Of a stretch of 54,415 nt of DNA, positions 18,816-44,199 are shown piece by piece. A program made the translations under genes and the position numbers. Position 1 is the stretch's first letter. Each line of letters opens with the position of its first letter. The DNA comes from Psychrosphaera sp. B3R10. Lineage in GTDB: Bacteria > Pseudomonadota > Gammaproteobacteria > Enterobacterales > Alteromonadaceae. The notes below the pieces were generated by a model. The model saw nothing but the letters and a program-made list of their open reading frames with translations, ran no database searches and had not been told where the DNA came from. The stretch is from assembly GCF_018861025.1 (NCBI RefSeq), contig NZ_JAHKQH010000043.1, positions 1 to 54,415 on the forward strand, given 5' to 3'.

Positions 18816-20058
18816 GAACTTTCCTACGCAAATATTAAATTGTTAACAAGCCGCGTATTGTATACTAATTAATCACCACTTTTCGAGAGCAAATCGAGTA
18901 TTAACACTAAATATTTTTAATAATGGGCTATTTATTTTTGTTATTGAACGAAATTTCGGCGGAATAAGGAATTCAGTTGTTTTAATGATCTGCTTATTGG
19001 AAAATGCGCCTTTAAAATTTTGGAGTAAGTTATGGCAGGTCAGCAGTTTGACGTAATCGTTATCGGAGCGGGTGCAGCCGGATTGATGTGTGCAGCACAA
19101 GCGGGTTATCGGGGACGTCGTGTATTATTGCTTGATCACGCAAAGCAAGCCGGGAAAAAGATATTAATTTCTGGCGGCGGCCGCTGTAATTTTACTAATA
19201 TGGATGTCGAGCCTAGCAACTATTTATGCAGCAATGAGCACTTTGTTAAATCGGCGTTGTCTCGTTATACCCAGTGGGACTTTTTAAGTCTGATTGCCAA
19301 ATATGAGATTGCTTACCACGAACGCGACTTTGGTCAGCTTTTTTGTGACGACAGTGCCAAAGATATCGTGCGACTATTAATGGGCGAATGCAACGAAGCC
19401 GGCGTTAAAGTTCAGCTTAGATCCGAAATTACAAACGTAACAAAAACCAACTCAGGTTTTGAGGTGCAAACATCTGGCCTTAACTATCAATGTGAGTCTG
19501 TTGTTATCGCAACAGGCGGGCTGTCTATGCCTAAATTGGGTGCTACACCATTTGGTTATAAAGTGGCTGAGCAGTTTGGGTTAACGGTATTGCCAACACG
19601 CGCTGGCCTTGTGCCATTTACCCTGCATGACCATGACAAAGCGATTTATGCTGATTTATCTGGCGTATCGCTCCCGATTCGAGTGGAATCAAAAGACGGC
19701 ACTTCGTTCCCCGCCGACATGTTATTTACCCACCGAGGTTTGTCTGGTCCATCGATTTTACAAATCTCCAATTATTGGTTACCAGGCGAAGCGGTTTCAA
19801 TCGATTTGCTGCCTCATATCGACTTAAAACAAGAACTGGATAATTTAAAACAACAGTCGTCAAATCAAAGCCTAAAAAATACGTTAGCGCAGTGGTTACC
19901 AAAACGGTTTATCGAAGCATTAATCGAGTCAAAACAACTCGTTGACAAGCCAATAAAGCAGCTCCAGCATAAAGACTTAGACAACACCATCGCCACCATT
20001 CATCAGTGGCAAGTAAAACCAAACGGCACTGAAGGTTACCGAACCGCCGAAGGAGATG

Positions 20059-20065
20059 AACATTA
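20059..20065 (+). repeat. Left terminal inverted repeat of the island
   Basis: AACATTA, extended imperfectly as AACATTACAAGTTA, lies 7 nt inside the left edge. The right end carries the same heptamer inverted at 44021-44027 (AACATTATAATTAC read outward-in). Likely part of the recombinase binding sites; the match is short. Confidence 0.45.
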
Positions 20066-20159
20066 CAAGTTAAATTGTTTATTATATTTAAATTATTTAT
20101 TTTCAATTGGTTATGATGACTTTAAGATCAACAGTAAAGATAGCACTCTAAGGCATAGT

Positions 20160-20173
20160 TTGTTGATCGATTC
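20160..20173 (+). repeat. Left subterminal 14-bp inverted repeat
   Basis: TTGTTGATCGATTC occurs here and, inverted, at 43996-44009 near the right end: an exact 14/14 match in opposite orientation, about 108 and 20 nt inside the two edges. A degenerate ATTGTTTAT also lies close to the left edge. A candidate recombinase arm or core site. Confidence 0.65.
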
Positions 20174-20212
20174 GGCCCCTCAAAATCTGCAAAACTATAA
20201 AGAGGCAGCATA

Positions 20213-21406
20213 ATGACTAATTGTGAGTCTGTTGACGTTATTGTAATTGGTGCTGGAGCGGCAGGTTTATTTGCTGCAAATACCGCAGGAAAAAATAATA
20301 GAAAAGTAAAAGTACTAGATCATGCCAAAAAGCCAGGGAAAAAGATTCTCATATCTGGTGGCGGTAGATGTAATTTTACTAATTATTATATAGAGCCAGA
20401 AAAGTACTTATGTAAAAACCCTCATTTCTGTAAGTCAGCTCTTAGTCAGTATACTCAATGGGAGTTTATTGGTTTAGTTGATGACTACAATATTCCTTAT
20501 CATGAAAAAACACTTGGGCAATTATTTTGTGATGATTCGGCAAAAGATATTGTAAACATGCTCATGAATGAATGTGAGAAAAGTAATGTTAGTTTTAGTT
20601 TTCAAACTGAAATTACTAAGGTCGAAAAATGTGAAGATGGGCAATTCTATGTTTACACAAACAAGCAAAGCTATAAGTGTGAATCTCTAATAGTAGCTAC
20701 CGGTGGTCTTTCAATGCCAAAGCTTGGTGCTACTCCTTTTGCTTACAAATTAGCTGAACAATTTGGCTTAACTGTACTTCCAACAAGAGCAGGCTTAGTA
20801 CCTTTTACACTCGATCCTGTCTTGAAAGAGCTACTGTCTGAAGTTTCAGGGGTATCAACCGATGTAACTGTCACTACAAACAATATGTCATTTGCTGAGG
20901 ATATGTTAATTACTCATCGAGGACTCTCTGGACCGGCTATTCTTCAAATATCATCTTATTGGCATCCAGGCGATCAAGTAGAAGTAAATTTGTTACCTAA
21001 TAAAGATATTGAACAGCTTATTACTGCGGCCTTGATTGAACAACCAAATATTTCAATTAAGAATTACCTTTCAACTCTATTTGCTAAAAGGTTTGCTGAA
21101 AAGCTCATCACTTTGTTTGATATTCCTAATGTACCTATCAAACAGCTGAATCATAAACAAATTCAAGCATTATCTGTAAATATACATGCATGGAAGATAA
21201 AACCTTCTGGAACTGAGGGGTATCGAACCGCAGAAGTCACAATTGGGGGGATCGATACTGATCATCTATCTTCTAAAACAATGGAGGTGAAATCAGTTTC
21301 AGGTTTATTCTTTATTGGTGAGGCAATTGACGTTACTGGTTGGCTAGGAGGGTACAACTTCCAATGGGCCTGGAGTAGCGGTTGGGTTGCAGGACAGAAC
21401 GCTTAA
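20213..21406 (+). CDS. yhiN: Island-borne replacement YhiN-type flavoprotein
   Basis: Complete, 397 aa, same family as the interrupted host gene but clearly diverged (roughly 60% identical by eye) and with more AT-rich codons. It keeps VIVIGAGAAGLFAANTAG, GKKILISGGGRCNFTN, TGGLSMPKLGATPFAY, GTEGYRTAEVTIGGI and the C-terminal IDVTGWLGGYNFQWAWSSGW. Its ATG overlaps the TAA of the broken host ORF (TAATG), with AGAGG about 7 nt upstream, so it can be translated from the host transcript by coupling. A hairpin terminator follows. Inferred role: it compensates for loss of the host enzyme on integration. The enzyme's physiological substrate is unsettled; BaiN homologues reduce unsaturated bile acids. 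Confidence 0.92.
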   Translation: MTNCESVDVIVIGAGAAGLFAANTAGKNNRKVKVLDHAKKPGKKILISGGGRCNFTNYYIEPEKYLCKNPHFCKSALSQYTQWEFIGLVDDYNIPYHEKTLGQLFCDDSAKDIVNMLMNECEKSNVSFSFQTEITKVEKCEDGQFYVYTNKQSYKCESLIVATGGLSMPKLGATPFAYKLAEQFGLTVLPTRAGLVPFTLDPVLKELLSEVSGVSTDVTVTTNNMSFAEDMLITHRGLSGPAILQISSYWHPGDQVEVNLLPNKDIEQLITAALIEQPNISIKNYLSTLFAKRFAEKLITLFDIPNVPIKQLNHKQIQALSVNIHAWKIKPSGTEGYRTAEVTIGGIDTDHLSSKTMEVKSVSGLFFIGEAIDVTGWLGGYNFQWAWSSGWVAGQNA

Positions 21407-21415
21407 CTTCTAGCA

Positions 21416-21449
21416 AGGCCTAATCCTTATAGCTTTAGGCCTGTTTTTT
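21416..21449 (+). terminator. Terminator after the replacement yhiN
   Basis: AGGCCTAA (21416-21423) pairs with TTAGGCCT (21435-21442), loop about 11 nt, followed by GTTTTTT. A strong rho-independent form 10 nt after the stop, closing the hijacked yhiN transcript before the cargo. Confidence 0.85.
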
Positions 21450-21469
21450 ATAATAAATTCACATTAATT

Positions 21470-22150
21470 TTACGAGTGACTGTTAGATGACAAAGGAGAT
21501 ATTTTCCAACCTTTCATAACTTGATCAATTGACAGTATCTGCACGGTTTTTTCAGTTTCTCCAGCATTCTTTAAATAAGGGGCAACATAATAATTATTTA
21601 GATAGTCAGCTGCATATTCATTAAATTCGCACATTCTATCCTTATAGAGTAAAAATTTAATACCTGATGATTCACGCCACTCAAATTTTCCATCATTCTC
21701 TTTAAAGCCATTAAAATTGGGTATCTTATCTGATAGTTTAACTGAACCTGTTTTGACACAACTCGAAAATATTCGATAACTAATTTTTCTTCTGTCTTCT
21801 ATATTTGGTAAGCGTAATATTGCCCATGCGTCAGGGATTAAAAAATTGACTTCACTGTCCTCTATTTGAGAGATAAACTTAAATTTGAAGAGGGCTGTGA
21901 GATCGGTTTTCTCATCTACTATTTGTTGAATACCTGTTAAACCGAATTTATTCAATTGGTATTTCAAAAATTTATAGCATTTGGCAATATCAACATTGTT
22001 GTCATTAAACTGAGCATTATCTCGATGCAATTGCTCTGCTAAGCCATCTAAAGTGGATTCTCCAATTTTTACATTAAGTAATATACGAAGAGCCCCTGAT
22101 CCAAGCATATGCTTAAACTCTTTATATACATCTTCAGTATTTTGTTTCAT
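21470..22150 (-). CDS. Hypothetical cargo protein
   Basis: About 226 aa, no signal peptide or membrane segment, no motif I recognise. It is Lys/Asn-rich with mixed helices (DVYKEFKHMLGSGALRILL; AAYDYLNNYY-like C-terminal part EFNEYAADYLNNYYVAPYLK). ATG 22150 is preferred; an in-frame GTG is at 22156 and GAGGTG lies just before the ATG. It is convergent with the replacement yhiN and divergent from the HTH gene at 22289, a position common for cargo regulators or effectors, but nothing further can be said. Confidence 0.55.
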   Translation of the reverse strand: MKQNTEDVYKEFKHMLGSGALRILLNVKIGESTLDGLAEQLHRDNAQFNDNNVDIAKCYKFLKYQLNKFGLTGIQQIVDEKTDLTALFKFKFISQIEDSEVNFLIPDAWAILRLPNIEDRRKISYRIFSSCVKTGSVKLSDKIPNFNGFKENDGKFEWRESSGIKFLLYKDRMCEFNEYAADYLNNYYVAPYLKNAGETEKTVQILSIDQVMKGWKISPLSSNSHS

Positions 22151-22288
22151 GAACACCTCGGTTGCCTAATATCTAATGACATTATCTATTAATAATTAAA
22201 TAATATTTGGCATCTAAATCGCACCAAATTGTCATCATACCTTGGTACTGTTTTGTTGCCAAGAGGGTTATGCAATAGAGTTCATGCC

Positions 22289-22540
22289 ATGATTAAGCAT
22301 ATAAACGATTCTCGTTATAAAGCCTTGATAGACTGGCTAAAAGCTGCTCGTAATGAGCAGGGGTTAACTGTGCGTGACCTTGGTAAATTACTGGGTGAGC
22401 CTCACCAGTTTGTGGTAAGAATAGAAACCTGTGAAAGAAAACTGAATGTATTTGAATACGTTCAGTATTGCGATGTATTAAATCTGCCTAAAGAGAAAGG
22501 CTTAGATATTTTAAGTACTCCTATCCAATCAATTTATTAA
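22289..22540 (+). CDS. XRE-type helix-turn-helix regulator
   Basis: About 83 aa consisting of one HTH: YKALIDWLKAARNEQGLTVR, DLGKLLGEPHQFVVRIETCERKLNVFEYVQYCDVL. The LTVRDLGKLLGEPHQFVVRIE part is a typical XRE helix 2-turn-helix 3. The start at ATG 22289 fits the family; an upstream TTG-initiated extension (from 22229) has no homologous look. A probable small DNA-binding regulator of the island, or an orphan antitoxin. It lies upstream of the HigB/HigA-type pair but is separated by about 150 nt. Confidence 0.7.
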   Translation: MIKHINDSRYKALIDWLKAARNEQGLTVRDLGKLLGEPHQFVVRIETCERKLNVFEYVQYCDVLNLPKEKGLDILSTPIQSIY

Positions 22541-22691
22541 TAAAATAGTATTTAATAAGAGCAGTTGTACATACTGCTTAATTAGGTATTTCTCATTTAA
22601 AAATAAGGTTCCACTAATATATTTTTAAAAAATATTTGAAAGTTCCAATAAATGGATCAATAATGGGGCTGTAATAAAAAGGAACTACAAT

Positions 22692-22979
22692 TTGAAAGTC
22701 ATTGGTCGAGAGTTAATTACTACGTACATAGCGAATAATTGTGATGCGCAAAAGCCATTGCAATGTTGGTTACGTGAAGTAGAAGAAGCTTCTTGGAAAG
22801 ATAAGGAAATAATAAAGATCTCTTATCGAGGAATCGACTTTTTGCCTAATAACAAAGTTATATTCCACTTCTTTGCTGGAAGCTTTAAATTACTTGCGTT
22901 AATTGTTATTGGAGCCGGTGTCATTATTGTAGAAAAAATAGGGTCCATTGCTGAATCAAGCAAATGGAATCTTAAGTAG
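22692..22979 (+). CDS. higB: HigB-family type II toxin
   Basis: A 95-aa RelE-like mRNA interferase of the HigB_toxin family. The layout matches: MKVIGRELITTYIANNCDAQ, KPLQCWLREVEEASWKDKEI, then IDFLPNNKVIFHFFAGSFKLLALI. The C-terminal half is unusual: where typical HigB has a charged IVYIRFVGTHAEYDKID, this one has VIGAGVIIVEKIGSIAESSKWN, so the catalytic His (THAEY) is replaced by SIAESS. It may be a weakened toxin. Start TTG 22692 with AGGA about 9 nt upstream. The stop is 9 nt before the antitoxin ATG, as expected of a higBA pair. Confidence 0.75.
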   Translation: MKVIGRELITTYIANNCDAQKPLQCWLREVEEASWKDKEIIKISYRGIDFLPNNKVIFHFFAGSFKLLALIVIGAGVIIVEKIGSIAESSKWNLK

Positions 22980-22988
22980 GTGAGCAAT

Positions 22989-24182
22989 ATGAAAATAAAA
23001 ATCATTACAAATGAAAAAGAACGAATAGAGGCTCAACAGCACCTATCGATGCTTATTGAAAAAGATCCCATCGCAAATGAAGATTTAATAGGTGTGTTAG
23101 GGCTTTTAATTGAAAATTACGAGAAAGAACTTTTTGATATTGGCTTGCCAGATCCCGTTTCTGCTATCGAATATCGTATGGAACAACAAAATTTATCTAG
23201 AAAAGACTTAATTCAATATTTAGGTACAAAAAGTAGGGTATCTGAAATATTGAATAAGAAAAAGTCATTAAGTCTATCTATGATTCGTTCATTACATGAA
23301 GGATTGGCAATCCCATATGATGTACTCCTGCAAGAACAAGAGCATGAACTAGACAATAGAGATGTCAATTATAATGATTATCCAATCTCAGCAATGTTTA
23401 AGCTTGGTTATTTTGGCAAAACCATAGCAAATATAGCAGATGCTAAAGAACGTGCAGAAGAGCTTATTAAGGGGCTTCTCAAGCCTGTAGGTATGAATAC
23501 CTTTGATAATTGTTCAGCTCACTTAAGAAAAAGTGATGCACATACAACAAATAAAAAAATGGATTCATTGGCTTTAGCAGCTTGGCAAGCAAAGGTTTTA
23601 AGCAAAACACTCAATACTAAGCTGCCAAATTGTGATCTAGAACGAATAGATCTTGATTTCATGAAAAGAGTTTTAAAGCTTTCAAGCCTGGAAAAAGGGC
23701 CGCTATTAGCTAAAGAGTTGCTTGCAAAAAATGGAATACATTTAGTTTTTGAAAAACATTTGCCCAAAACATATTTAGATGGTGCTGCGATGTGGGGCAT
23801 CGATGGTAATCCTGTTATTGGTATGACTATCCGCTATGACAGACTAGATAATTTTTGGTTTGTTTTAATGCATGAGTTAGCACACGTATCGCTTCACTTG
23901 AAAGAGACAAAAATACCGTTTTTTGATGATCTTGACAGTTCAGAACACGTCAATAATCAGGAAGATGAGGCTGACGAAAAAGCTTTAGCCGCTTCATTAT
24001 CAAAAAATGACTGGTCAAAATATATTGGCATGCTAGATACACCTAATAGTGTTCTAAGCCTTGCAAATAAGCTCGGAATAAGTCCTGCGATTATTGCAGG
24101 TAGGTACAGAAAAGATACCGGAAACTATCGAATATTTAACCGCCTAATTGGCAGTAATCAGGTAAGAGATATGATTTTTTAA
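22989..24182 (+). CDS. HigA-type antitoxin fused to an ImmA/IrrE (M78) metallopeptidase
   Basis: About 397 aa. The N-terminus resembles HigA: an acidic lead (LIGVLGLLIENYEKELF) and an HTH at about residues 58-100 (AIEYRMEQQNLSRKDLIQYL, SRVSEILNKKKSLSLSMI). The C-terminal half is an ImmA/IrrE-family zinc peptidase with HELAH at about 295-299 (VLMHELAHVSLHL) and downstream EDEADEKALAASL supplying the third ligand. In this class an HTH represses and the peptidase cleaves a regulator or the antitoxin itself. Paired with HigB it suggests conditional antitoxin removal, which is an inference. ATG 22989 follows AGGTG; an in-frame GTG at 22980 is the alternative. Confidence 0.82.
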   Translation: MKIKIITNEKERIEAQQHLSMLIEKDPIANEDLIGVLGLLIENYEKELFDIGLPDPVSAIEYRMEQQNLSRKDLIQYLGTKSRVSEILNKKKSLSLSMIRSLHEGLAIPYDVLLQEQEHELDNRDVNYNDYPISAMFKLGYFGKTIANIADAKERAEELIKGLLKPVGMNTFDNCSAHLRKSDAHTTNKKMDSLALAAWQAKVLSKTLNTKLPNCDLERIDLDFMKRVLKLSSLEKGPLLAKELLAKNGIHLVFEKHLPKTYLDGAAMWGIDGNPVIGMTIRYDRLDNFWFVLMHELAHVSLHLKETKIPFFDDLDSSEHVNNQEDEADEKALAASLSKNDWSKYIGMLDTPNSVLSLANKLGISPAIIAGRYRKDTGNYRIFNRLIGSNQVRDMIF

Positions 24183-24198
24183 AATTTATGGGAAGGTA

Positions 24199-24230
24199 TC
24201 ACAAGGTAATGTTGGCGCATTACCTTGTGA
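24199..24230 (+). terminator. Hairpin after the higBA-like operon
   Basis: A perfect 13-bp stem (24199-24211 with 24218-24230) with a 6-nt loop, beginning 17 nt after the stop. There is no U tract after it on the + strand, so it may be a bidirectional boundary or RNA-stability element rather than a canonical terminator. Confidence 0.6.
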
Positions 24231-24348
24231 CAGATGACCCAAACAAACGAGGCACATCTTAGGAATTTTTACGTTCCAGACAGGCTTACTTTAGTCAAAA
24301 ACGTAAAACATTTCAACCTAATGCCTCTTAAATATAGGAGTGTGCATT

Positions 24349-24495
24349 ATGGCCACTAAAAAGAAAATCCCTGTTCCAGAGGGTATGAAGTTAATCTTTC
24401 GCAGATATAGAAAGGACCCTAAGTCAAACCAGATGCTTGATGCAAGGCGTTATGGTTGTAAAGCTTGGCCCATTCTTGTTCCAGCTGAAAGTTAG
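24349..24495 (+). CDS. Small 48-aa basic island protein
   Basis: ATG 24349, with AGGAG 8 nt upstream, encodes 48 residues beginning MATKKKIPVPEGMKLIFRRY and ending CKAWPILVPAES. The mix of KxIFRRYRKDPKSNQMLDAR and a conserved-looking KAWPI terminus recalls short unnamed proteins often found with the next gene in gammaproteobacterial islands; I recall this association but cannot verify it here. Function unknown. Confidence 0.65.
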   Translation: MATKKKIPVPEGMKLIFRRYRKDPKSNQMLDARRYGCKAWPILVPAES

Positions 24496-24552
24496 CGTAA
24501 ACGAGCAGTTTATATGTAGCTGCTCAAATTTATATTTTAGAGGATAGTTGAA

Positions 24553-24798
24553 ATGACTAATACTAAACAAAGCTCTAAGCAGTTAGCTTCAAAAGCTGCT
24601 TCAACATTAAATGATCCATCGGCGTCTCAAATACAAAAGTCGTTAGCGGCATCAGTATTGAGCCAATCTAGCTCAACACATCAAACGAGCTCCGGAATGG
24701 AAACCAAGGCTTCAAATGTTATGAAGAGCGACAAATACAGTGATGATACAAAATCATTTGCTGCATCTGTTCTCTCACAGTCAAACAAAGCCCGGTAA
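24553..24798 (+). CDS. Small Ser/Ala-rich repeat protein
   Basis: 81 aa, low complexity with an internal repeat: SQIQKSLAASVLSQS and TKSFAASVLSQSNKA, each preceded by an ALN-D/S-SDKYSDD type linker. It would form amphipathic helices. It sits 57 nt after the 48-aa gene in the same direction with a good RBS (AGAGGATAG), so the two probably share a transcript. Not recognised functionally; proteins of this look (KAASTLxxPxASxxxKSLAxSxLSQ) are frequent island companions in my recollection. Confidence 0.6.
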   Translation: MTNTKQSSKQLASKAASTLNDPSASQIQKSLAASVLSQSSSTHQTSSGMETKASNVMKSDKYSDDTKSFAASVLSQSNKAR

Positions 24799-24807
24799 TG
24801 TTCTGTT

Positions 24808-24842
24808 TAGGGGATAAGCAGAGATTACCTGCTTATCCCCTA
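24808..24842. terminator. Strong 14-bp hairpin
   Basis: A perfect 14-bp inverted repeat (24808-24821 with 24829-24842) and a 7-nt loop, directly after the repeat-protein gene and before the nuclease-like gene. It lacks a long T run; probably a terminator or attenuation point. Confidence 0.65.
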
Positions 24843-24890
24843 TCTTGGGTTTAAAAATACACCATGGCAACTTAAAGATGAGTTTAACAA

Positions 24891-25877
24891 ATGGCAAATA
24901 AAAAAATTTGGGCCTATGGAAAGGACATTAATGGCGATTATATAACTGGTGAAGTACACCCTTTGAGGATTTTTTATATTTGGGAAGTACTTAAGCTGAA
25001 GCGTGACAATATTCATGAATTCAATAAGATTACTTTCATGAGTACTCAAAAAGATCCAAATGCGAGAACTGAAATGTCTTCTGTAATAAAAGGCTTCTTT
25101 AGGTATATAAAAAAACCTAAACAATCTATTAAAGAAGATAAAGATAGTGATTCATTATCTCATTCTATTGCGATATTAGCTCTTGCAGAACAAAAGCAAC
25201 TCAATTTCACGTGTGGCGAGGTTAAGTTCACAATTGACGTTGATGAACTGCGCACTGAAGATGTAAAAATACAACTTACAAATAGAGATACATTCGATTA
25301 TTACTATCCAGATCTAATTTGTCAGTTTTCTTCGCCACAAGATCTAGCTGAAAAATGGGGGGGGAAAGTAGCTTTAGAAGTTAAACAGACTCATGCTTGT
25401 GACCCTGAAAAAATACATGACTTTAAAAATCATTGTATACCGATCATCGAGATAGATATTGAAAAGTGGTCTATTGAAAAAAAATACGAAACAAAATCAC
25501 CTTCACCAGAGCAATTAGAAGATTACTTTTATTTCTGGAAAAACGTGTTTAGTAAAAATATTTTCGGTAAAATTTTAAGTGATCCGGTCACTCCTCAATA
25601 TTATGAAAAAAAAGAGATTGAATTTAAGAGCCGTATTGATTCGTTACAATCCCAAAACAAGCAGTTAGCGGATGGATACCAAGGAGTGAAAAAGCAAGTT
25701 TTAGCTATTGAAACTAAAAACACCCGATTAACTTCTAATATTGACAGCTTAAATGAAAAATACGTTAAAGAAGTCAAAGAGTTGAATGCATTAATTAATG
25801 ATAAAAACAGCGCTATTAGCATACTTGAAAGTAGAGGACTGTTTGACTTTATTAAACAAGCTTTTAAGGTTAATTAA
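24891..25877 (+). CDS. PD-(D/E)XK nuclease-like protein with a C-terminal coiled coil
   Basis: 328 aa. The middle carries YYYPDLICQF at about 140-149 and KVALEVKQTHACDPEKIHDF at about 162-181, the D...ExK arrangement of PD-(D/E)XK nucleases, in a setting like CoiA or DUF6035-type proteins. Residues about 240-315 form a coiled coil (FKSRIDSLQSQNKQLADGYQ ... LTSNIDSLNEKYVKEVKELN). No membrane segment. Possibly a defence nuclease or a DNA-processing protein of the island. It stands alone after the hairpin at 24808-24842. The RBS is weak. The nuclease call is motif-based only. Confidence 0.55.
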   Translation: MANKKIWAYGKDINGDYITGEVHPLRIFYIWEVLKLKRDNIHEFNKITFMSTQKDPNARTEMSSVIKGFFRYIKKPKQSIKEDKDSDSLSHSIAILALAEQKQLNFTCGEVKFTIDVDELRTEDVKIQLTNRDTFDYYYPDLICQFSSPQDLAEKWGGKVALEVKQTHACDPEKIHDFKNHCIPIIEIDIEKWSIEKKYETKSPSPEQLEDYFYFWKNVFSKNIFGKILSDPVTPQYYEKKEIEFKSRIDSLQSQNKQLADGYQGVKKQVLAIETKNTRLTSNIDSLNEKYVKEVKELNALINDKNSAISILESRGLFDFIKQAFKVN

Positions 25878-25971
25878 AGTGAATAGCCGATTTTTGCCCG
25901 TTACTGGCGGCCCCCTGCATCAGGAGCCAATAGATAATAATGTGCTCAGATACCGGTAACTTAAAACTATT

Positions 25972-26199
25972 TTAACCGTTTCGTCCTAGAAGCTTTTTTA
26001 ACTTTTGCTGCGCTACTTTGTCACCTGATGATAGAGCTTTATATTCATCAATAAGCTTTGTTAAGCCTGAATTTTTCTCACCACGAAAATATTCAATATT
26101 ACGCTCTATTTTCTTCAAGATCTTAACTAGACTAACATCATTAACCTGTGAAACATCTTCTTTGTGAGCAAATAGGCTTTTCTCTTGCGGAAAGTTCAC
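25972..26199 (-). CDS. Short helical ORF, possibly a gene remnant
   Basis: 75 codons starting at GTG 26199 (MNFPQEKSLFAHKEDV). It is helical and Lys-rich with LVKILKKIERNIEYF. The start lacks a clear RBS and the frame stays open upstream as RYFVN, so it looks like the C-terminal end of a larger gene whose 5' part is lost. It is downstream of the HNH gene in the same orientation, separated by 267 nt without recognisable content. Confidence 0.35.
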   Translation of the reverse strand: MNFPQEKSLFAHKEDVSQVNDVSLVKILKKIERNIEYFRGEKNSGLTKLIDEYKALSSGDKVAQQKLKKLLGRNG

Positions 26200-26466
26200 A
26201 AAGTAACGTAAACCACGCTTACTTTATATCGAATTGTGATTTAAAAACCCGCGCTTTATGAATCATATATAGAGTAATTTTGATTTATAAAATAAAGATG
26301 TATAAATCAAATTAATTCTTTTGGGCAGGGCTGAACTATTTAAACGTCTGCGCTTTGTAAAAATGTTCAAATCGTTGTAAATGATAGCGAACATCTCTTG
26401 ATAGCTCAAAGTGCTAGTCAGATGAAGTCCAAACTTATTCATCGAAACTGTAAGATCAGATATGAG

Positions 26467-36209: not shown

Positions 36210-36464
36210 ATGTCTCATCAAAACAGCAACCCCTCCCTAGAAGAACATACTAATTTAACTGAACTAGAGCATTTAAAAGCTGAGCATTTTGATATTTATC
36301 AAGAGCTGATGAAGCAGTTTAAATTTGATGATCGGGTGTGCCATGAATGGCTGACTAAACCCAAGCGCCCCTTGCAAGGTAAGTCACCTTTTGAGCAACT
36401 TGCGATTGATGCTGAAGTAGTAATGGAGATGCTAGTTCGCATGAGAACTGGTGACTTTTCATGA
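36210..36464 (+). CDS. Small DUF2384 (MbcA/ParS toxin-binding-like) protein
   Basis: 84 aa. The C-terminal two thirds (CHEWLTKPKRPLQGKSPFEQ, LAIDAEVVMEMLVRM) show the pattern of the antitoxin Xre/MbcA/ParS toxin-binding domain: WL..P...L.G.SP......A..V...L.R. It lacks an HTH of its own. The start lacks a good Shine-Dalgarno. It is 13 nt upstream of a longer protein that carries a second copy of the same domain. No RES or other ParT-type toxin is next to it. Confidence 0.65.
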   Translation: MSHQNSNPSLEEHTNLTELEHLKAEHFDIYQELMKQFKFDDRVCHEWLTKPKRPLQGKSPFEQLAIDAEVVMEMLVRMRTGDFS

Positions 36465-36477
36465 GGGGCAAGCGCTA

Positions 36478-37185
36478 GTGAATATTTTATTTTTATGCAC
36501 TTCTAATATTCAGTGCAGCAAAACCGCTGAAGAATTGTTTCGTGCTGCAAATAGCGGTCACGAGTATAAATCAGCAGGTCTCAGCGCCAAATACGTGCAG
36601 AAAGCTAACTCGACACTTTGCACTGAAGAAATGTTGCAATGGGCTGATCAAATTTATGTGTTTGAACAGCAACACATTGACCGCATTAAAAAGCACACAG
36701 GGGATGTTTATTTGTCTAAAATAACTAATTTAAAGATTCCTGACGATTACCAGTATTTTCAACGAGAGCTGGTTTTACTTTTACTAGAACGAGTTAAATT
36801 AGTAAGTTGTGTTAAAACTTCGAGCATAAACCATAGTGTAGCTTTTGATTTAGGGGCTCGCCTTCTTGAAAAGTGGGGTTGTACTACTATTCAGAAGCTA
36901 GCAATTTTAGGAATAACTAAAGCTGACTTTCATCGCTATCAAAAAAATATAAACACGGTTTATTTAGATAAAGAGCAGCTAGAGCGTCTTAGTTACCTCG
37001 CAAACATTCATCAAAACCTTAAAGTGGCTTTTTCTAATCCTGATAACGTCTATGGCTTTATGAATATGAAAAATAATAATTCATATTTTAATGGAAGAAC
37101 TCCACTATCGATCATAGCTACGGGTAACTTTGACTCTTTAGATGAAGTATTTAAGCGAATAGATTGTATGCTACACGGAGCCTAA
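36478..37185 (+). CDS. LMW phosphatase-like domain fused to an Xre/MbcA/ParS-type antitoxin
   Basis: About 235 aa. Residues 1-107 follow short low-molecular-weight tyrosine phosphatases (NILFLCTSNIQCSKTAEELF; AGLSAKYVQ; WADQIYVFEQQH; IPDDYQYFQRELVLLLLERV). The active-site loop should be CX5R; here it is CTSNIQC, so the phosphate-binding Arg is Cys and catalysis is doubtful. Residues about 115-235 are an Xre-like helical region (LEKWGCTTIQKLAILGITKA) and a DUF2384 toxin-binding domain (VYGFMNMKNN ... GRTPLSIIATGNFDSLDEVF). GTG 36478 has GAGGGG about 10 nt upstream and gives a proper phosphatase N-terminus; the longer frame starts at GTG 36451. No frameshift is needed for the fusion. Confidence 0.65.
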   Translation: MNILFLCTSNIQCSKTAEELFRAANSGHEYKSAGLSAKYVQKANSTLCTEEMLQWADQIYVFEQQHIDRIKKHTGDVYLSKITNLKIPDDYQYFQRELVLLLLERVKLVSCVKTSSINHSVAFDLGARLLEKWGCTTIQKLAILGITKADFHRYQKNINTVYLDKEQLERLSYLANIHQNLKVAFSNPDNVYGFMNMKNNNSYFNGRTPLSIIATGNFDSLDEVFKRIDCMLHGA

Positions 37186-37243
37186 TCGACTTTTATAACA
37201 GTAAGTTACGATTTGTACAATTATCGATTGTGCTTACTAGGGA

Positions 37244-38548
37244 TCATGCACTACGGATTTCAGTAAACTGTTTTATATGTAGTTCCATATGCTGCTCGAA
37301 CGCCTTTTTTACATCTATATCCACATCTGTTTTATTTATATCGAAAGTCCCAGGTAACAAAGCCAATATGGCTGCATTTCCACGTAACTTTAAGACCGTT
37401 TTGATATACTTTTTTGTTGTCTCTATATCCGCATGACAAAGCTGCATTTGTAACCAGCTATGGATATCACTCAACATAGACATATTGATTTCCAAATCAG
37501 TCACTTTTTCATAATTCATAAGTATATGTGTTGCACCAGTGTGACGAAGATCATGAGGTATAACTTTTTTCCCAATTTTTTTTGATGCGGTTTTAAAAGC
37601 CTCTTGGAGCATATGACTAGAAACTGGCGTTCCATGTTGATTTATCCATAATGGTGGATACTTGGTAATTAAAGGGTCTTTACAATGCTTGGAAGGGACA
37701 TATTTTTCTATTAGTTTTTTACGCCGCTCTTCGAAGTCATGATTCAATAGCAATTCATCAATGAATTTCATCGTATGTATTGTGACTGTACAGTGAGCGT
37801 TAGAACCACCTTTATTACGAAACCATAACTCTTGAGTTTCAATATTAGCGCTTTGCATTTCACGATAACTTTTCCATAATGGATTCTTTGCATTCGGGCT
37901 TTTCGGGAACTGCCTTATTCCACCGTTTCGGAGTAATGTTTGCAGCATTGCAATGGCCATAACACCAAACACGCTATCTTCTTCATTTAATGCTTTAAAT
38001 AGTTGCCAAAATTCATCCATTGTTAAAACACTATCAGCATATGTTTCATTCTTAGTTAACCAGTCATCTGGGACTGTATTATTCTTCTTTCTTCTGACTG
38101 TATCTTTATTTCCTCTTGTATGTGATTGGAAATCACCTTCGGGATTGCGTTTTTTTTCAAAGAAGTTGGACGCTGGAAATTTCATATTATGATGAATGTT
38201 ATTTGCTGTTAAATAATCGAAGTAAGCCTGCCACGATGAAACATAAACCTGGATAGAGTTACCTGTAAAGCTAGTGTCATGCATAAAATCCATTAAATCT
38301 TCAACATCTTCATAAGTAGCCTCATACGGATCAATTCCATTATCTTCAAAAGTATCGAATAAAAATTTTAAGTGGTACGCTGTAGTTCTTAACGTTTCTT
38401 CGCTTGCAGATTTTTTCTTATTAGGTATGGATGAAGGCTCATTTTTAAAAGCATGTAAGAATGAAAAAAGCTGTTCATGGACATGCCCATTACTAGTTAT
38501 GGGGATCCCGCAAGAAAGAAGGTTGCTTTCAGTAAATTTAATTGGCAT
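37244..38548 (-). CDS. Tyrosine recombinase (island integrase 1)
   Basis: 434 aa. A SAM-like N-terminal domain (residues about 40-135) precedes a catalytic domain with Arg I in TLLRNGGIRQF, HxLR in IPHDLRHTGATHIL at about 331-344, and the His/Tyr end CHADIETTKKYIKTV, where Tyr is 9 residues after His. All catalytic residues are present. Its ATG abuts the TAA of the preceding P-loop gene, so it is the fourth gene of the recombinase operon. It corresponds in kind to the recombinase of gamma-mobile-trio islands (possibly GmtY); the name is not assigned because I cannot compare. Confidence 0.85.
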   Translation of the reverse strand: MPIKFTESNLLSCGIPITSNGHVHEQLFSFLHAFKNEPSSIPNKKKSASEETLRTTAYHLKFLFDTFEDNGIDPYEATYEDVEDLMDFMHDTSFTGNSIQVYVSSWQAYFDYLTANNIHHNMKFPASNFFEKKRNPEGDFQSHTRGNKDTVRRKKNNTVPDDWLTKNETYADSVLTMDEFWQLFKALNEEDSVFGVMAIAMLQTLLRNGGIRQFPKSPNAKNPLWKSYREMQSANIETQELWFRNKGGSNAHCTVTIHTMKFIDELLLNHDFEERRKKLIEKYVPSKHCKDPLITKYPPLWINQHGTPVSSHMLQEAFKTASKKIGKKVIPHDLRHTGATHILMNYEKVTDLEINMSMLSDIHSWLQMQLCHADIETTKKYIKTVLKLRGNAAILALLPGTFDINKTDVDIDVKKAFEQHMELHIKQFTEIRSA

Positions 38549-39526
38549 TTAATTTCTTACCACTATTATTTCGTCAATGAATGTTTCTCTTTCAATATCA
38601 ACTTTTTCAAGACGTGCAACATATTCAATAAGTATTGAAGATGGTATTTGTCTATCAAATGGTCGAGCCATATTTCTTGTTTGTATTAAAGGAATTGGGG
38701 TATTGATTACAACAGCACAAATTAGTGCTGTTGGGTTAGTTTTCGCAATAAGGTTAGCCCATTCAAAACGATCAATAAGCGTTAAATTACAGCAATCAAT
38801 TATTAGAGAGTGGCGATCAGGGTAAAGCTCTCCTTGTTCAATCCAGGTGGTTTTTCCGCTGCACGGTAGGCCAACCATTAAGTATACCCTTGTTAATATT
38901 GGCTTTTTCAACTCAGTAGTTATGTTTTTTCGCGTATCACTCCAAGCTGAATTTCTTAAACTAATATCATCAAAGTTATACTTACCATCGACAAAAAGAA
39001 GTGTATCAGGTGAGAACACTTTAGCTGAACCAACAAATGACTGTTTAATTTTTGGTGAAGAAATTGCTTCGTATGCGTATTTATCAAGTTTCTCTTGAAG
39101 TTCTTCTATTTCTTTCCTTTTAGAAGATAAAGAAGCACTTAACCTGTTTTTATCAATAAGTAGTCTGGCAGATTGATCTTGCGCATTTTCTGACTCTTTT
39201 CTTAATCGAGAGATTTCTTCATCCTTGATGCCGATCACCGTGTCATCAAACTCCATTGATTTATCTTTGTTCCATGTAGTGATTTTTTCACCTAGATCAG
39301 TAAATAAGTTATTATATTTTGACTCTGAAAAATTAGGTTTATAAAAAGTTGTTCTATTCAATCTCGACTCTTCAGCTATTTTAGACAGTACAAGTCTTTT
39401 TTTACCTTCAGCTTTTGCTTGAGATAGATGATCAATGTATATATTTAAAGCATCATCATACTTTTGCTGTGGCGAGCGTTTATCTTCGTCTTGCTCACTT
39501 GGCTTTTTAGCTATTTTTTTAACCAT
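38549..39526 (-). CDS. Coiled-coil P-loop protein of the recombinase operon
   Basis: 325 aa. Residues about 20-70 resemble a small DNA-binding helix-turn-helix (KKRLVLSKIAEESRLNRTTF YKP), residues about 105-150 are a coiled coil (ISRLRKESENAQDQSARLLI), and the C-terminal half is a kinase-like P-loop domain: Walker A VGLPCSGKTTWIEQG at about 216-230, with SLIIDCCNLTLIDRFEWANL behind it. Not a recombinase. Such a protein between recombinase genes could load or regulate the recombinases (inference); it may correspond to GmtX. It overlaps the upstream recombinase by 8 nt. Confidence 0.7.
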   Translation of the reverse strand: MVKKIAKKPSEQDEDKRSPQQKYDDALNIYIDHLSQAKAEGKKRLVLSKIAEESRLNRTTFYKPNFSESKYNNLFTDLGEKITTWNKDKSMEFDDTVIGIKDEEISRLRKESENAQDQSARLLIDKNRLSASLSSKRKEIEELQEKLDKYAYEAISSPKIKQSFVGSAKVFSPDTLLFVDGKYNFDDISLRNSAWSDTRKNITTELKKPILTRVYLMVGLPCSGKTTWIEQGELYPDRHSLIIDCCNLTLIDRFEWANLIAKTNPTALICAVVINTPIPLIQTRNMARPFDRQIPSSILIEYVARLEKVDIERETFIDEIIVVRN

Positions 39527-41543
39527 TAGCTAACTCTACCTCGATATCCCCAAAGACTTCTTTTATGTCTTTAGCGTACTGTTTAATAAAAATTTTAGCT
39601 GTTTGCTCTTCATCAAATGAGCTTTCTAGACCTAATAGAAGTTGCTTATAGAACACGTAAGCTTCATAAAGTGGTAAGCTCCAATCTCCCATTAGTGAAT
39701 CTTTGCACTTATTTCCAATACAGTTCGCCAAATCTGGTAATGTACCTAAAACTTCTGAATATGCTTTAGAAAAACCAGAGTCACTTCTCATTCGTCGATA
39801 TTTATCATGACTGCAAGGGGACTCAGTAGTATCGTTTGCATTTCTCATACAAATAACACTCATTGGTGTTAAAAGAGCATTCATTTGACCTGATTGAATG
39901 CGTTCATAGAGCAAGACTTTAAATTGTTCTTTTAAAGTTAAATTTAGCTCTGCTTCTGTTAGAGATTCAGATTGATTAATATCTTTTTTAAGCTCTTCAA
40001 TGCCTGTTTTTAATGATTCTGCCTTACCTCCTGCAATTTGATCGTTTACTATCGCATTAGTGATTTGCTCAACGGTTTTAAAGGTACTTTCCTTAATAAT
40101 TTCTTTTCGTTTTTTAATTACGATGGGATTATTTTTCAAGTAAGCATCAGGCATAAGCCCATTTGAGTGTCCGAATAATTTTTTTAAAATTAAAATAGCA
40201 AACTTACTATGACTTCCGATCCAACCAGCAAGAGTCGATCTATAGCAATGAGCTGTAGCTTCATAGTCTTTGTCTTCATCTATGATCAAATCAATAGAGT
40301 AATAGTTAAAAAAGTATCGAATAATTTGGCTAGTAACTTTACCATCTGCAATTGCCCACTCTTCACCTTCTTTTCGTTCTTTACCCCTGTTAATTTTCTG
40401 TACACGATTAAGTAAAAATTTAGACGATTTTTCCCATCGAATTGCTTCTAACAGCTTTGTTGCTTTATAAGTTCTGGAAGGTACTGGAATAACAAAGTTT
40501 TTCAGTTTAGTTTTTTTTATGTTGAGAACGAGGTAATAAAGTAAATCACTACGCTTAGATGAAATGCAGCATCCCACTTGTAAATTTCTTAGATCTACAT
40601 TTCTAATGCCTGTTGTTAAAAGAATAATTTGAGTTGCTGCTCCCCTTGCTAATTTAAATAAATCATTTAGCCATGACATTGTTATTTTGCCCTTAACATC
40701 AAATTCTAAAGGTAAAAATGATTTGAAGTACCGTCCATAATTCTCAACAATAGTTCTTGAAATAAATGTATTTATTTGAGGTTTTTTGCTGTTCTTTTCA
40801 CGCTTTGAGTTTTTGTCTTGATTACTTCTAACCAAATAAAAAATCTCAGATATAACACGTATTCTTTCTTCAGATATCCATGGTTCAGCATGTGTAATAA
40901 TCTGACTGATTTGGGAAAGTGGAATCGGGATGTATGGAGTTGCTATATGATAATAACCGAGCTGATTGTTTACATTATTCACCCAACTTGAAATGTCATT
41001 TCCTTCCCAAGGTAGCTCCAAATTACCGTGTAAAAAAGGTGCTTCTTTAATAGAGTCAAATGGAGTTTTTTCTACATAAGAAAAAACAGATAATGCATGA
41101 TAGTTAAAAACGCTTTGTTTCTTTTGAATATAACAAGATACTACCTGCGTAATATCTCCTTTTTTTAGGTACGATAAGCCTTTAATAGAAGAGCTACCAC
41201 TAATTGTAAGTATATTCTTTTCTTCAAGAAGGTGACCAAATTTAGACATAAATTCAGGAACAACATTGATAATGCTTGTTGCTTTGTTGTTTAGTTCTAT
41301 TTGGTGGTAAATGACAACTTTAATGAGCACCATTAAAGGAAATTGATTTTCACTAAAGTAGTTTAACCATTTAAAATCTGGCTGGTCAAAGTTCTTGAAT
41401 TTCCAAACGTTATCAGAAAACTTTGATTCGTTAGATATTCTACTCATATCGTAGGTGTCATACTTTTCGCCAAGAGCTTTTAAACATTGTAGCTGCTGGT
41501 AAAGTTGACTATTTAGTACATTTAGTTTTAAAAGGTTTTCCAT
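39519..41543 (-). CDS. Large tyrosine recombinase (island integrase 2)
   Basis: About 674 aa. The catalytic domain has Arg I in LLTTGIRNVDLRNLQVGCCI at about 303-322, HxxR in ATAHCYRSTLAGWIG at about 426-440, and GHSNGLMPDAYLKN at about 460-473 with Tyr 9 residues after His. A long N-terminal part of about 250 aa and a C-terminal tail of about 170 aa with Cys pairs (CSHDKYRRMRSDSG; ANCIGNKCKDS) go beyond simple integrases. ATG 41543 follows AAGGA and is one base beyond the upstream stop. Confidence 0.8.
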   Translation of the reverse strand: MENLLKLNVLNSQLYQQLQCLKALGEKYDTYDMSRISNESKFSDNVWKFKNFDQPDFKWLNYFSENQFPLMVLIKVVIYHQIELNNKATSIINVVPEFMSKFGHLLEEKNILTISGSSSIKGLSYLKKGDITQVVSCYIQKKQSVFNYHALSVFSYVEKTPFDSIKEAPFLHGNLELPWEGNDISSWVNNVNNQLGYYHIATPYIPIPLSQISQIITHAEPWISEERIRVISEIFYLVRSNQDKNSKREKNSKKPQINTFISRTIVENYGRYFKSFLPLEFDVKGKITMSWLNDLFKLARGAATQIILLTTGIRNVDLRNLQVGCCISSKRSDLLYYLVLNIKKTKLKNFVIPVPSRTYKATKLLEAIRWEKSSKFLLNRVQKINRGKERKEGEEWAIADGKVTSQIIRYFFNYYSIDLIIDEDKDYEATAHCYRSTLAGWIGSHSKFAILILKKLFGHSNGLMPDAYLKNNPIVIKKRKEIIKESTFKTVEQITNAIVNDQIAGGKAESLKTGIEELKKDINQSESLTEAELNLTLKEQFKVLLYERIQSGQMNALLTPMSVICMRNANDTTESPCSHDKYRRMRSDSGFSKAYSEVLGTLPDLANCIGNKCKDSLMGDWSLPLYEAYVFYKQLLLGLESSFDEEQTAKIFIKQYAKDIKEVFGDIEVELANG

Positions 41544-41544
41544 T

Positions 41545-43959
41545 TTAAAATCCTTTTTGTGAAAAAATTGGAGGCAAAAGAGCTTGTCCATTTACCCAAC
41601 ATTTGTTTGCATAGATATAAGCCTCTTCTAAAAGCTTTACACCATTTACATGTTCTTTCTTGAATCGCTCTAAAGAGTCAAGCGCAATAGTATGTTTATC
41701 AATCAATGTTGAGTTAAATAAGTCAGGTGTCTTCTCCATAACTTTTTCATACTGCAATACCCTGTAAACAATACGAGGAAGATGGCCAGAAAAAACTCTA
41801 GATCTTTTACAGCCAAGGCATAAATCAAAACTTTTACAATAATCTAAATGAATTAATTCTTTAGGCGTAGGTTGCGTAGGGTCAGTACAATCACATAGAT
41901 ATCTTTGCTTAAAATTTGTCAGTGATTTATCTTTACCAACTACAATTTCGCCTTCGAACTTTAAAGCGGAATCAAGTAAGTCTTCGGTAAGCGCAATTAT
42001 TGATAGATCAATTGCATGAGAACTATGGCCACTTTTCATCAAGTAGCTAAAGACTGTTACATCAAAATTTTTGTGACTAAGTGCAGCTTTAAGTTTTTCA
42101 ATTAGTTCAGTTTCAGATTTTACTTCATCTATTAAAGAAGTTAGTTTGTGACCGGCAAAAACTTTTCGAAACTTATGTCCTTCAAGAGAAGGTAATCGCT
42201 GCCAAGTGTCATCCATAATGCTAAATATCTTACAAAATGTAGAAATCAAGTTCTGCCATTTGTGATCATTTAATTCATAAAACAATTCTCGTTCTTTATC
42301 TTTTGTGCTATCAAGCAGCTCCAGATATTTATAAAAAGGTGAAGATACATTTACAGAGCTAATGACCTCTTTTCCAAGCCCGGTGAAATTCGACCTTTTT
42401 TTGTATCCTAAGAGCAATATCGCCTTTTCTTTGTTGTTAGATTCCTCAGTTGATCCTAAATATTTATCAAAGTACTCTAACGTGGAAATACCATCGATTT
42501 TTGACAGTGTTGAGTAAATTACTTCGCCATTTAAGCCGTAGGTTATACATGCATATAAAGCGACTAAAAAGGCTAGGTGATCTGACTTTCCTGATAAAAA
42601 ATCAAAATATGAGTGGTTAAATTTTTCAATTTCTCCATCTTCATACTCTTTTCTTTGTCTGACTCCCCATAAGTCTTTTCTCAGATAGCATAAAAATTCA
42701 TGGTATTGCTCTTCTTGATTATATGCTTCTGCAATTTTTCTTATTCGCTGAACCAACCAATCTTTTCGATCTGGGTTTCCCTTTAAGTGAAGTAAAACAT
42801 TATCCATTAGGATTTCGTAGCCGTTATTACCTTGATTAAGTAAATCAGAAATTTTACTTTCATATAGCTTTATCGGTCGTTGAACTCTTATAGAAAACTT
42901 TTCATACTCGATATAGTTTTTACCCAAATCTGATTTTTTAATTCTTTTAATGTCATTTTTTCTTTGTTTTATCGTTTTAGTAGCTGTAAATTTAAGAAAC
43001 GATTTATATTCAGAAACCATTCCCAACTTTGTTGCAAGTCTATTGATTTTATTCATAAAACGACCTTGGTAGGCTGCCTTGTGAGCTTCATCGTAAATGC
43101 AATTCAGATATAAGGTTTGATACTTTTCAGGGGATGAAAGTAATTCATTAATCTTTTTATCGTAATAATAAATCGGAGGTACTGCTTCTATTTCAAAATT
43201 GTTAGGATTTAAATAATGTACGCCTAACACTTCAGGGGATAGCTGTTTAATGTGCTCCATTGAAGTCTTTATATTTTCAATTTCATAAAATGTATAAGCT
43301 AAGATCTGAGTCATTATTCGATCAGAGTACCCTTGATCAAGTGCTAGCTCTAAATCTATTTCATGGATATTCCGAGATAGACTTTTATCCCACATTACAT
43401 TAAGTAAACCTATATCCTTGAAGTAAGGCTCCTCAAGAAATAACGCTTTTAAGCTATTAAAGTAATTTTCTTTGGTTATGTTTTTTTCTTCGAGTAAATA
43501 GGCTCTAAAATTTGCGAATGTGCTTAATTCCAAATTTAAAATATCGCTTAAGTTAAGTTTTTCTAAATACTCTATAAAGTAACGTAAGCATGAGTTAATT
43601 TTTGATAGGCTTGACCATTTACTTTGTTTTTCTAAATGCTTTATTAAAAGCCTTGCTAAAAACTCCGCACTTTCTCGACCTAATACACTCACTGCGAAAT
43701 TAAAAAATGATTCCTTTTTATTATTCTCTGCGTGAGTTCCGGCTCCAATTATTGTTTTTAAGTGATTATGAAACCTTGAGTTTGCCTCTTCTTTTGAGTT
43801 AGCTGCTTCAAAGAAAAAACGTATTCCTTTTGATTTATTTTCAATATATGGTTGAAATGGAGGAAGTTCTGGATGAGTAATCGATATCACTTTATGATCT
43901 TCAGATCTTTTATTTCTATATTTTGATAAATCTCGTTTTGTTCTTTTACTAACAACCAT
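41545..43959 (-). CDS. Large recombinase-like protein, Tyr not at its usual place (operon gene 1)
   Basis: 804 aa, first gene of the operon. Recombinase-like signals are an N-terminal core-binding-like region (LSKINSCLRYFIEYLEKLNL), an HxFR box in GHKFRKVFAGHKL at about residue 595, and GHSS in LMKSGHSSHAIDLSIIALTE at about 640. No Tyr lies 8-10 residues after this His, so catalytic ability is uncertain. A Cys-rich segment follows at about 685-715 (YLCDCTDPTQP; LDYCKSFDLCLGCKRSR), probably a zinc-binding module. It may serve as the targeting or DNA-bending partner of the two intact recombinases. Confidence 0.65.
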   Translation of the reverse strand: MVVSKRTKRDLSKYRNKRSEDHKVISITHPELPPFQPYIENKSKGIRFFFEAANSKEEANSRFHNHLKTIIGAGTHAENNKKESFFNFAVSVLGRESAEFLARLLIKHLEKQSKWSSLSKINSCLRYFIEYLEKLNLSDILNLELSTFANFRAYLLEEKNITKENYFNSLKALFLEEPYFKDIGLLNVMWDKSLSRNIHEIDLELALDQGYSDRIMTQILAYTFYEIENIKTSMEHIKQLSPEVLGVHYLNPNNFEIEAVPPIYYYDKKINELLSSPEKYQTLYLNCIYDEAHKAAYQGRFMNKINRLATKLGMVSEYKSFLKFTATKTIKQRKNDIKRIKKSDLGKNYIEYEKFSIRVQRPIKLYESKISDLLNQGNNGYEILMDNVLLHLKGNPDRKDWLVQRIRKIAEAYNQEEQYHEFLCYLRKDLWGVRQRKEYEDGEIEKFNHSYFDFLSGKSDHLAFLVALYACITYGLNGEVIYSTLSKIDGISTLEYFDKYLGSTEESNNKEKAILLLGYKKRSNFTGLGKEVISSVNVSSPFYKYLELLDSTKDKERELFYELNDHKWQNLISTFCKIFSIMDDTWQRLPSLEGHKFRKVFAGHKLTSLIDEVKSETELIEKLKAALSHKNFDVTVFSYLMKSGHSSHAIDLSIIALTEDLLDSALKFEGEIVVGKDKSLTNFKQRYLCDCTDPTQPTPKELIHLDYCKSFDLCLGCKRSRVFSGHLPRIVYRVLQYEKVMEKTPDLFNSTLIDKHTIALDSLERFKKEHVNGVKLLEEAYIYANKCWVNGQALLPPIFSQKGF

Positions 43960-43995
43960 GCCATTACCTTTTTAATTCGATAACATTAATATAGT

Positions 43996-44009
43996 GAATC
44001 GATCAACAA
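43996..44009 (-). repeat. Right subterminal 14-bp inverted repeat
   Basis: GAATCGATCAACAA, the exact reverse complement of 20160-20173. It lies between the recombinase operon start and the right edge, so it could also act as an operator for the operon. Confidence 0.65.
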
Positions 44010-44020
44010 TGTGGTAATTA

Positions 44021-44027
44021 TAATGTT
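44021..44027 (-). repeat. Right terminal inverted repeat of the island
   Basis: TAATGTT, the inverse of AACATTA at 20059-20065, just 2 nt inside the right edge. Beyond it the host yhiN sequence resumes. Confidence 0.45.
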
Positions 44028-44028
44028 T

Positions 44029-44199
44029 GTCACTTTAGGCGGCGTAGACACCAATCAACTGTCGTCAAAAACGATGGAATGTAAATCAGTAAAAGGTTTG
44101 TATTTTATTGGCGAGGTCACAGATGTAACGGGTTGGTTAGGCGGCTATAACTTCCAGTGGGCCTGGGCCTGTGGATGGGCGTGCGGGCAAGATTGTTAA
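44029..44199 (+). pseudogene. yhiN: Host yhiN, 3' part, separated by the island
   Basis: Reads VTLGGVDTNQLSSKTMECKS then the conserved VTDVTGWLGGYNFQWAWACG and ends at TAA 44199. These are the last 56 residues of the host YhiN, in codon usage like 19032-20051. It completes the 5' part exactly (TAE|VT). No promoter or RBS of its own is evident; an open frame continues a few codons into the island (from GTG 44011), so it is probably not translated usefully. Confidence 0.9.

What the first reader, a model, noticed from the sequence alone, without database searches (positions are those of the whole stretch)
19032..44199. Island splits yhiN but brings its own full-length yhiN replacement
The host gene is interrupted near its end (19032-20051 and 44029-44199 rejoin into a perfect 396-aa YhiN), while the island carries an intact but diverged YhiN directly inside its left edge. 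Known integrative elements often repair a target by supplying a short end of the gene; replacing the whole protein by a separately evolved copy is less usual. It suggests that YhiN matters to the host and that the island co-evolved with its target.
Basis: partly seen in the sequence, partly recalled or inferred. Interest (0 to 1): 0.85.

Follow-up and report, generated by a model that had tools for sequence, protein, structure and literature searches.

The report
Island that replaces the gene it breaks
A 24-kb mobile DNA island cuts a conserved bacterial gene (yhiN) near its end and brings along its own complete, long-diverged version of that gene; relatives of the island do the same to other genes, a strategy known from a few earlier cases but seen here in a recombinase family I could not place among the described ones.

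Summary
Host yhiN is split after codon 340 (19032-20051 / 44029-44199; the flanks rejoin into 396 aa). The ~24-kb insert carries an intact 397-aa YhiN, 59% identical to the host's N part, about 160 bp inside its left edge. At the other edge lies a four-gene recombinase module (X-Y-Z-W): two tyrosine recombinases with complete catalytic residues, a large protein lacking them, and a coiled-coil/P-loop protein. I found this module in 8 further genomes of the family. In 6 of these 9 islands the interrupted gene could be read; 3 of the 6 carry a full-length copy of exactly that gene (yhiN; an Atm1-like ABC exporter; an AstE/AspA-like enzyme), 3 do not as far as searched. A different four-gene system in another genus splits yhiN within about two codons of the same place and carries a YhiN of the same lineage. 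Island-type YhiNs from six genera form one supported clade; in five genomes that type is the only YhiN found. Whole-gene replacement itself is known (RME/recA, SE-6283/bcp, Tn552-II/tgl). So this is a new variant of a known kind: new target, unassigned recombinase family, recurrent strategy. Movement and YhiN function are untested.

The parts
19032..20051 (+). host yhiN, N-terminal part (codons 1-340)
   Evidence: sits with its genus in the tree
44029..44199 (+). host yhiN, C-terminal part
20052..44028 (.). inserted island, about 24 kb (ends placed by the two host parts; a base or two uncertain)
20213..21406 (+). island yhiN, full length, 397 aa; ATG overlaps the TAA of the truncated host frame (TAATG), AGAGG just upstream
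20052..20213 (+). island end read in frame behind host codon 340: 53 codons, then the stop that overlaps the island yhiN start
   Evidence: 154 of 20,000 base shuffles stay open
20160..20173 (+). subterminal repeat TTGTTGATCGATTC, left end
43996..44009 (-). the same 14 bases inverted, right end
41545..43959 (-). X, 804 aa: conserved module protein without the catalytic residues of tyrosine recombinases; conserved Cys cluster
39519..41591 (-). Y, 690 aa: large tyrosine recombinase, R330/H448/R451/H475/Y484 invariant in 9 of 9
38549..39526 (-). Z, 325 aa: coiled coil and P-loop, conserved module protein
   Evidence: (below Pfam cut-off)
37244..38548 (-). W, 434 aa: tyrosine recombinase, R207/H332/R335/H372/Y381 invariant in 9 of 9
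22692..24182 (+). cargo: PD-Lambda-2 A and B (candidate defence system)
26467..28931 (-). cargo: PDC-M01 A and B, Septu-like (PtuA-type ATPase)
28931..36080 (-). cargo: type I restriction-modification genes (R, S, M), a DUF2513 gene and a WYL-domain gene

Best explanation
A defence-cargo island moved by a four-gene tyrosine-recombinase module (X-Y-Z-W) inserted site-specifically into yhiN DNA that encodes a nearly invariant peptide (GYRTAE|VT). That insertion breaks the host gene, and the island carries a complete YhiN that stands in for it. Shown from sequence: the split, the intact and constrained copy, the module, the parallel cases. Inferred: (1) Y and W do the strand exchange, with X and Z as partners, by analogy with SEs, GInts and Tn554; (2) in this orientation transcription from the host promoter reaches the island yhiN, and the TAATG overlap with AGAGG lets ribosomes restart there; (3) the copy supplies the lost function and so lowers the cost of insertion; (4) such copies sometimes displace the native gene.
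For: Copy matches the broken gene at three different genes with the same recombinase family: yhiN, Atm1-like ABC exporter in G994, AstE/AspA-like in G912 on a single contig, and again at yhiN with another four-gene system in G1051. In all four the copy sits within about 160 bp to 240 bp of a host fragment, away from the recombinases. Island-type YhiNs are one clade, 7 of 80 rows at 100/99 and 7 of 98 at 100/100. dN 0.16 with saturated dS between the window copy and G793. Two of the module proteins keep the full catalytic set in 9 of 9.
Against: 3 of 6 islands with a readable target show no second copy of it (G799, G985, G839; their far ends are not on the fetched contigs). Translational coupling cannot be general: in G912 and G1051 the copy lies on the other strand from the host gene. 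No evidence of movement or expression. The target site is still present in the island copy (GAAGTCAC in both), so nothing suggests protection from re-insertion.
Confidence: 0.78

Rival explanations
1. The YhiN copy is ordinary cargo with its own use (for example redox or defence related) and matches the broken gene only by coincidence or by shared recombination history.
For: 3 of 6 relatives lack a replacement, so carrying one is not obligatory; the island is full of defence cargo.
Against: The match between carried and broken gene recurs at three different genes and, at yhiN, with two recombinase systems; the copy stands at the island edge each time.
Confidence: 0.1
2. The copy is kept mainly as a landing or homology aid: it preserves the target sequence or lets the island recombine at yhiN, and its protein function is incidental.
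For: The copy keeps the core GAAGTCAC of the target; Tn552-II's tgl also keeps an att copy (PMC12486829).
Against: Whole proteins are conserved under purifying selection, far beyond the few bases of a target site; 59% protein identity leaves little DNA homology.
Confidence: 0.08
3. Assembly error or tandem duplication of yhiN followed by unrelated insertion.
For: The window's genome is a draft of 48 contigs.
Against: The copies are 59% identical and fall in different clades; all 7 same-genus genomes have one copy; G912 and G994 show the same arrangement inside single contigs.
Confidence: 0.02

Closest known systems
recA mobile element (RME) of Vibrio cholerae S24 (PMC4405046; abstract and passages seen)
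   Same: Island splits a conserved gene at a specific site, carries a complete divergent copy at one end and a phage-type integrase at the other; also carries a XerS-like recombinase.
   Different: Target recA, not yhiN; the copy there was shown to protect from UV and the island to excise; kinship of its recombinases with X-Y-Z-W not tested (sequence not held).
SE-6283 / Tn6283, strand-biased circularizing integrative element (PMC5991714, PMC9345347, PMC10214605; passages and sections seen)
   Same: Four core genes, two with catalytic residues and one large one without; splits bcp and carries a bcp homologue of 54.8% identity; marine Gammaproteobacteria.
   Different: Core order intA-tfp-intB-srap from the left end; here X(no catalytic set)-Y-Z-W, with W last and sometimes kilobases away. 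Sequence kinship not tested.
[quoted passage not shown] passages and part 1 seen)
   Same: Four-gene recombinase operon at one end, defence or fitness cargo, high target specificity.
   Different: Order ginABCD with a small fourth protein; no whole-gene replacement in the passages I saw, rather changes of gene ends or outward promoters.
Tn552-II / Tn554 group (PMC12486829; parts 1 and 2 of 3 seen)
   Same: Tyrosine-recombinase transposon that inserts in a gene and carries a target-gene-like gene (tgl) proposed as rescue.
   Different: Three transposition genes, staphylococci, YolD-like target.
Tn6230, Tn7-like, at the yhiN-yhiM gap in E. coli (PMC10121019; passages)
   Same: The same neighbourhood is an integration hotspot.
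   Different: Inserts after yhiN without splitting it; no Tn7-type proteins found here.

Membership tests
SE | two recombinases with the RHRY set, one tyrosine-recombinase-fold protein without it, one small partner | tested here: inconclusive
SE | core order intA-tfp-intB-srap from the left end | tested here: not met
   order is X-Y-Z-W with W last in 9 of 9 modules:
SE | sequence homology to Tfp and Srap | not testable with these tools
   no SE protein held; record AP024167 absent
SE | 6-bp footprint beside the right end | tested here: inconclusive
   G912 shows GTGCAA left and ATGCAA right, read by eye; not resolvable in the window
SE | circle formation without an empty donor site | not testable with these tools
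   needs DNA from the strain
GInt | ginABCD order, with the integrase lacking the first Arg third | tested here: not met
   the protein lacking catalytic residues (X) comes first:
GInt | sequence homology to GinA-D | not tested
   no GInt protein was fetched
RME-like gene-replacing island (recA) | complete divergent copy of the split gene at one end, integrase at the other | tested here: met
RME-like gene-replacing island (recA) | target recA | tested here: not met
   target yhiN:
RME-like gene-replacing island (recA) | excision restores the split gene; carried copy functional | not testable with these tools
   the joined flanks are open, which is compatible only
Gamma-Mobile-Trio | GmtX, GmtY, GmtZ | tested here: inconclusive
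   no such match for X, Y, Z, W in NCBIfam at E 0.01; that the library holds GMT models is recalled; the paper is not held
Tn7-like transposon | TnsA/B/C and TniQ-type proteins | tested here: not met
   no such Pfam match above cut-off in the 18 island proteins scanned; one TnsA-like hit below cut-off (E 0.009) at 24891-25877
Tn554 group | three genes tnpA, tnpB, tnpC | tested here: not met
   four conserved genes:

The most novel reading that the evidence does not exclude
X-Y-Z-W islands are a separate family of four-gene recombinase elements that aim at DNA encoding near-invariant, often catalytic, peptide motifs, and make this tolerable by carrying a whole replacement gene that matches the target. 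The carried genes form long-lived mobile lineages, shared between unrelated recombinase systems, that can displace the chromosomal original, so that a core gene becomes the property of mobile elements.
Probability: 0.35. Interest if true: 0.75.

Novelty: new variant of a known kind. Interest (0 to 1): 0.58.

Why it matters
It turns a few isolated cases (recA, bcp, tgl) into a recurrent strategy that can be searched for: an island breaks a conserved gene and supplies its own. It would explain how a site-specific element can use highly conserved coding DNA as a landing site in many hosts, and gives a route by which core genes are replaced by mobile copies, which would mislead gene trees and markers. 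It also points to yhiN as a landing site for defence islands outside E. coli.

Tried and rejected
Gamma-Mobile-Trio and Tn7-like readings were considered first and dropped. Viral contigs: no relative of Y and two YhiN relatives at 46-48%, not followed. Plasmids: no match for X or Y; YhiN matches in 61 records, each below 60% identity. Class-level search with X found only the window, 1 of 369; order-level with Y 3 of 394, one of them the window and one very weak. G867's orphan C-terminal yhiN piece was tested as a classical 3'-end replacement; equivocal, and the script stopped before the two other cases.

Full report
OBSERVATION. 19032-20051 and 44029-44199 join into a 396-aa YhiN, which sits with its genus in the tree (8 rows, 100/100). 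Between them lie about 24 kb with a second, intact YhiN at 20213-21406, 59% identical to the host N part and 75% to the C part. GC is 35% in the island against 45% in the host yhiN parts and 41% in the left flank, but the right flank, at 36%, is like the island, so GC alone does not mark it. All 7 same-genus genomes have one yhiN match each, open through the site. The truncated host frame runs 53 codons into the island and its TAA overlaps the ATG of the island YhiN, behind AGAGG. 154 of 20,000 base shuffles of that stretch stay open: a weak hint of translational coupling.

RECOMBINASES. At the opposite end, reading inward, are X (804 aa), Y (690), Z (325) and W (434). Pfam recognises only W as a phage-type integrase above its cut-off. 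A two-row profile of Y found matches in 16 of 390 family genomes. I read the surroundings of 9, window included; all 9 have X, Y, Z and W in that order, W sometimes kilobases away. Of the other 7, G800 and G813 hold pieces with module proteins and five (G684, G711, G843, G870, G925) are weak; their neighbours were not read. Across the 9, Y and W keep the tyrosine-recombinase residues invariant (Y: R330, H448, R451, H475, Y484; W: R207, H332, R335, H372, Y381); X does not, but keeps a Cys cluster. X therefore resembles the inactive partners Tfp and GinC of SEs and GInts in role, but neither Pfam nor profile comparison showed its fold.

TARGETS. In 6 of the 9 the interrupted gene could be read, each at a strongly conserved motif: window yhiN GYRTAE|VT; G994 Atm1-like ABC exporter LLNYET|; G912 AstE/AspA-like HGAEVQ|GN; G799 M49 peptidase NTMF|HEVAHG; G985 Met-zincin HEVG|HTLG; G839 a YciA-like thioesterase at V|HGG (that name, and Atm1, are recalled). 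Both halves of the host gene were seen in the window, G994 and G912; in G799, G985 and G839 only the half beside X. By eye, the X end begins CAAA at the host boundary in the window, G912, G839, G985 and G799. G785, G975 and G555 were unresolved. Full-length copies of the broken gene are present in 3 of 6: window; G994 (603 aa, 61-68% identical, about 140 bp from the host N fragment, insert about 42 kb; there X lies 9 kb from the host C fragment, so the module is not at the very edge); G912 (378 aa, 63%, 240 bp from the host C fragment, everything on one contig, insert about 28 kb). In G799, G985 and G839 whole-genome searches with the N-terminal part of the target found no second copy (G985 has a 27% paralogue). 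These are drafts, and the far ends of those three islands were not on the fetched contigs.

A SECOND SYSTEM AT THE SAME SITE. In G1051, another genus, host yhiN is split within about two codons of the same place (N part on contig C14, C part on C45), the island lies in the opposite orientation, and a complete YhiN, 70% identical to the window's island copy, stands about 85 bp from the C part. Its four genes (717, 705, 163, 505 aa) do not match X-Y-Z-W by blastp and only weakly by profile (705 with Y, 505 with W). They are like a quartet on Providencia IncT plasmids beside umuDC in order and size, with 26.5% identity over 49% of the 705-aa protein. The middle of that island is not assembled, so its unity rests on matching inverted ends.

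THE YhiN LINEAGE. Among 80 YhiN rows, seven form one clade at 100/99: window island, G793, G886, G1051 island, G1118, G985, G961, from six genera, while the native copies compared sit with their genera. With 68 named outgroup rows and 30 of the former rows the clade stays (7 of 98 rows, 100/100), next to a Salinimonas-like lineage (93/89). G793, G886, G1118, G985 and G961 have no other YhiN match. Their flanks are shared with no other locus compared, but so are the upstream flanks of some native loci (16 of 77 unshared in all), and no X-Y-Z-W protein was found in the stretches held around them (5 to 34 kb). Loss of the native gene after arrival of a mobile one is the likely reading, not proven. 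dN between the window's island copy and G793 is 0.16 with dS saturated, so the copy is under purifying selection.

HOTSPOT. Of yhiN loci with at least 1,400 bp of flank, 61 of 77 share an upstream neighbour with another locus but only 23 of 79 share a downstream one (loci chosen by nearness to the island YhiN and as genus-mates, not at random). Separate C-terminal yhiN pieces in G859, G867, G933, G786, G1103, G1062 and G544 begin at about codons 338-373; some are decayed. In E. coli a Tn7-like element, Tn6230, uses the gap after yhiN (PMC10121019, passages).

PRIOR ART. RME in V. cholerae recA: complete divergent recA at one end, integrase at the other, functional and excisable (PMC4405046, abstract and passages). 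SE-6283/Tn6283: bcp split, bcp homologue of 54.8% identity carried, compensation proposed and compared with RME (PMC5991714, passages; PMC9345347, section 6 and passages). Tn552-II: tgl proposed as rescue (PMC12486829, parts 1 and 2 of 3). SE and GInt definitions: PMC10214605 (outline, sections 7, 9, 12, 13, first part and passages) and PMC5385486 (passages and part 1). One search with yhiN, transposon and insertion site listed no yhiN-replacing island among the 20 papers shown of 6,253; that is not exhaustive.

VERDICT. The finding is real, and the replacement reading is well supported by recurrence over targets and recombinases, though not every island of the family has a replacement. It belongs with RME and SE-6283 as a way of working; by gene order the X-Y-Z-W module is neither an SE nor a GInt as described in the passages I saw, and sequence kinship with them remains to be tested.

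Noticed in passing
36210-37185: Two overlapping frames: an 84-aa Xre/ParS-type C-terminal piece followed by a 244-aa protein that joins a low-molecular-weight phosphatase-like N part to an Xre-like HTH and toxin-binding domain (scores mostly below curated cut-offs).
   Followed up: no
22692-25877: PD-Lambda-2 A and B genes followed by a 328-aa coiled-coil protein with a sub-threshold TnsA-like nuclease hit.
   Followed up: no
44438-45106: FRG-domain protein just outside the right end of the island; this flank is as AT-rich as the island, so it may be another insertion.
   Followed up: no
L102:4376-6490 (G867): Intact yhiN followed about 780 bp later by a decayed C-terminal yhiN fragment starting near codon 341, perhaps the scar of an earlier island.
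   Followed up: partly
L103 (G933), L107 (G786), L108 (G1103): yhiN intact at one place and a short separate C-terminal piece (from about codon 355 or 373) elsewhere: other integration events at the 3' end of yhiN.
   Followed up: partly
L215/L216 (G785): Two UmuC-like polymerase genes, 64% identical, inside or near the X-Y-Z-W island; umuDC also lies beside the Providencia quartet and in RME.
   Followed up: no
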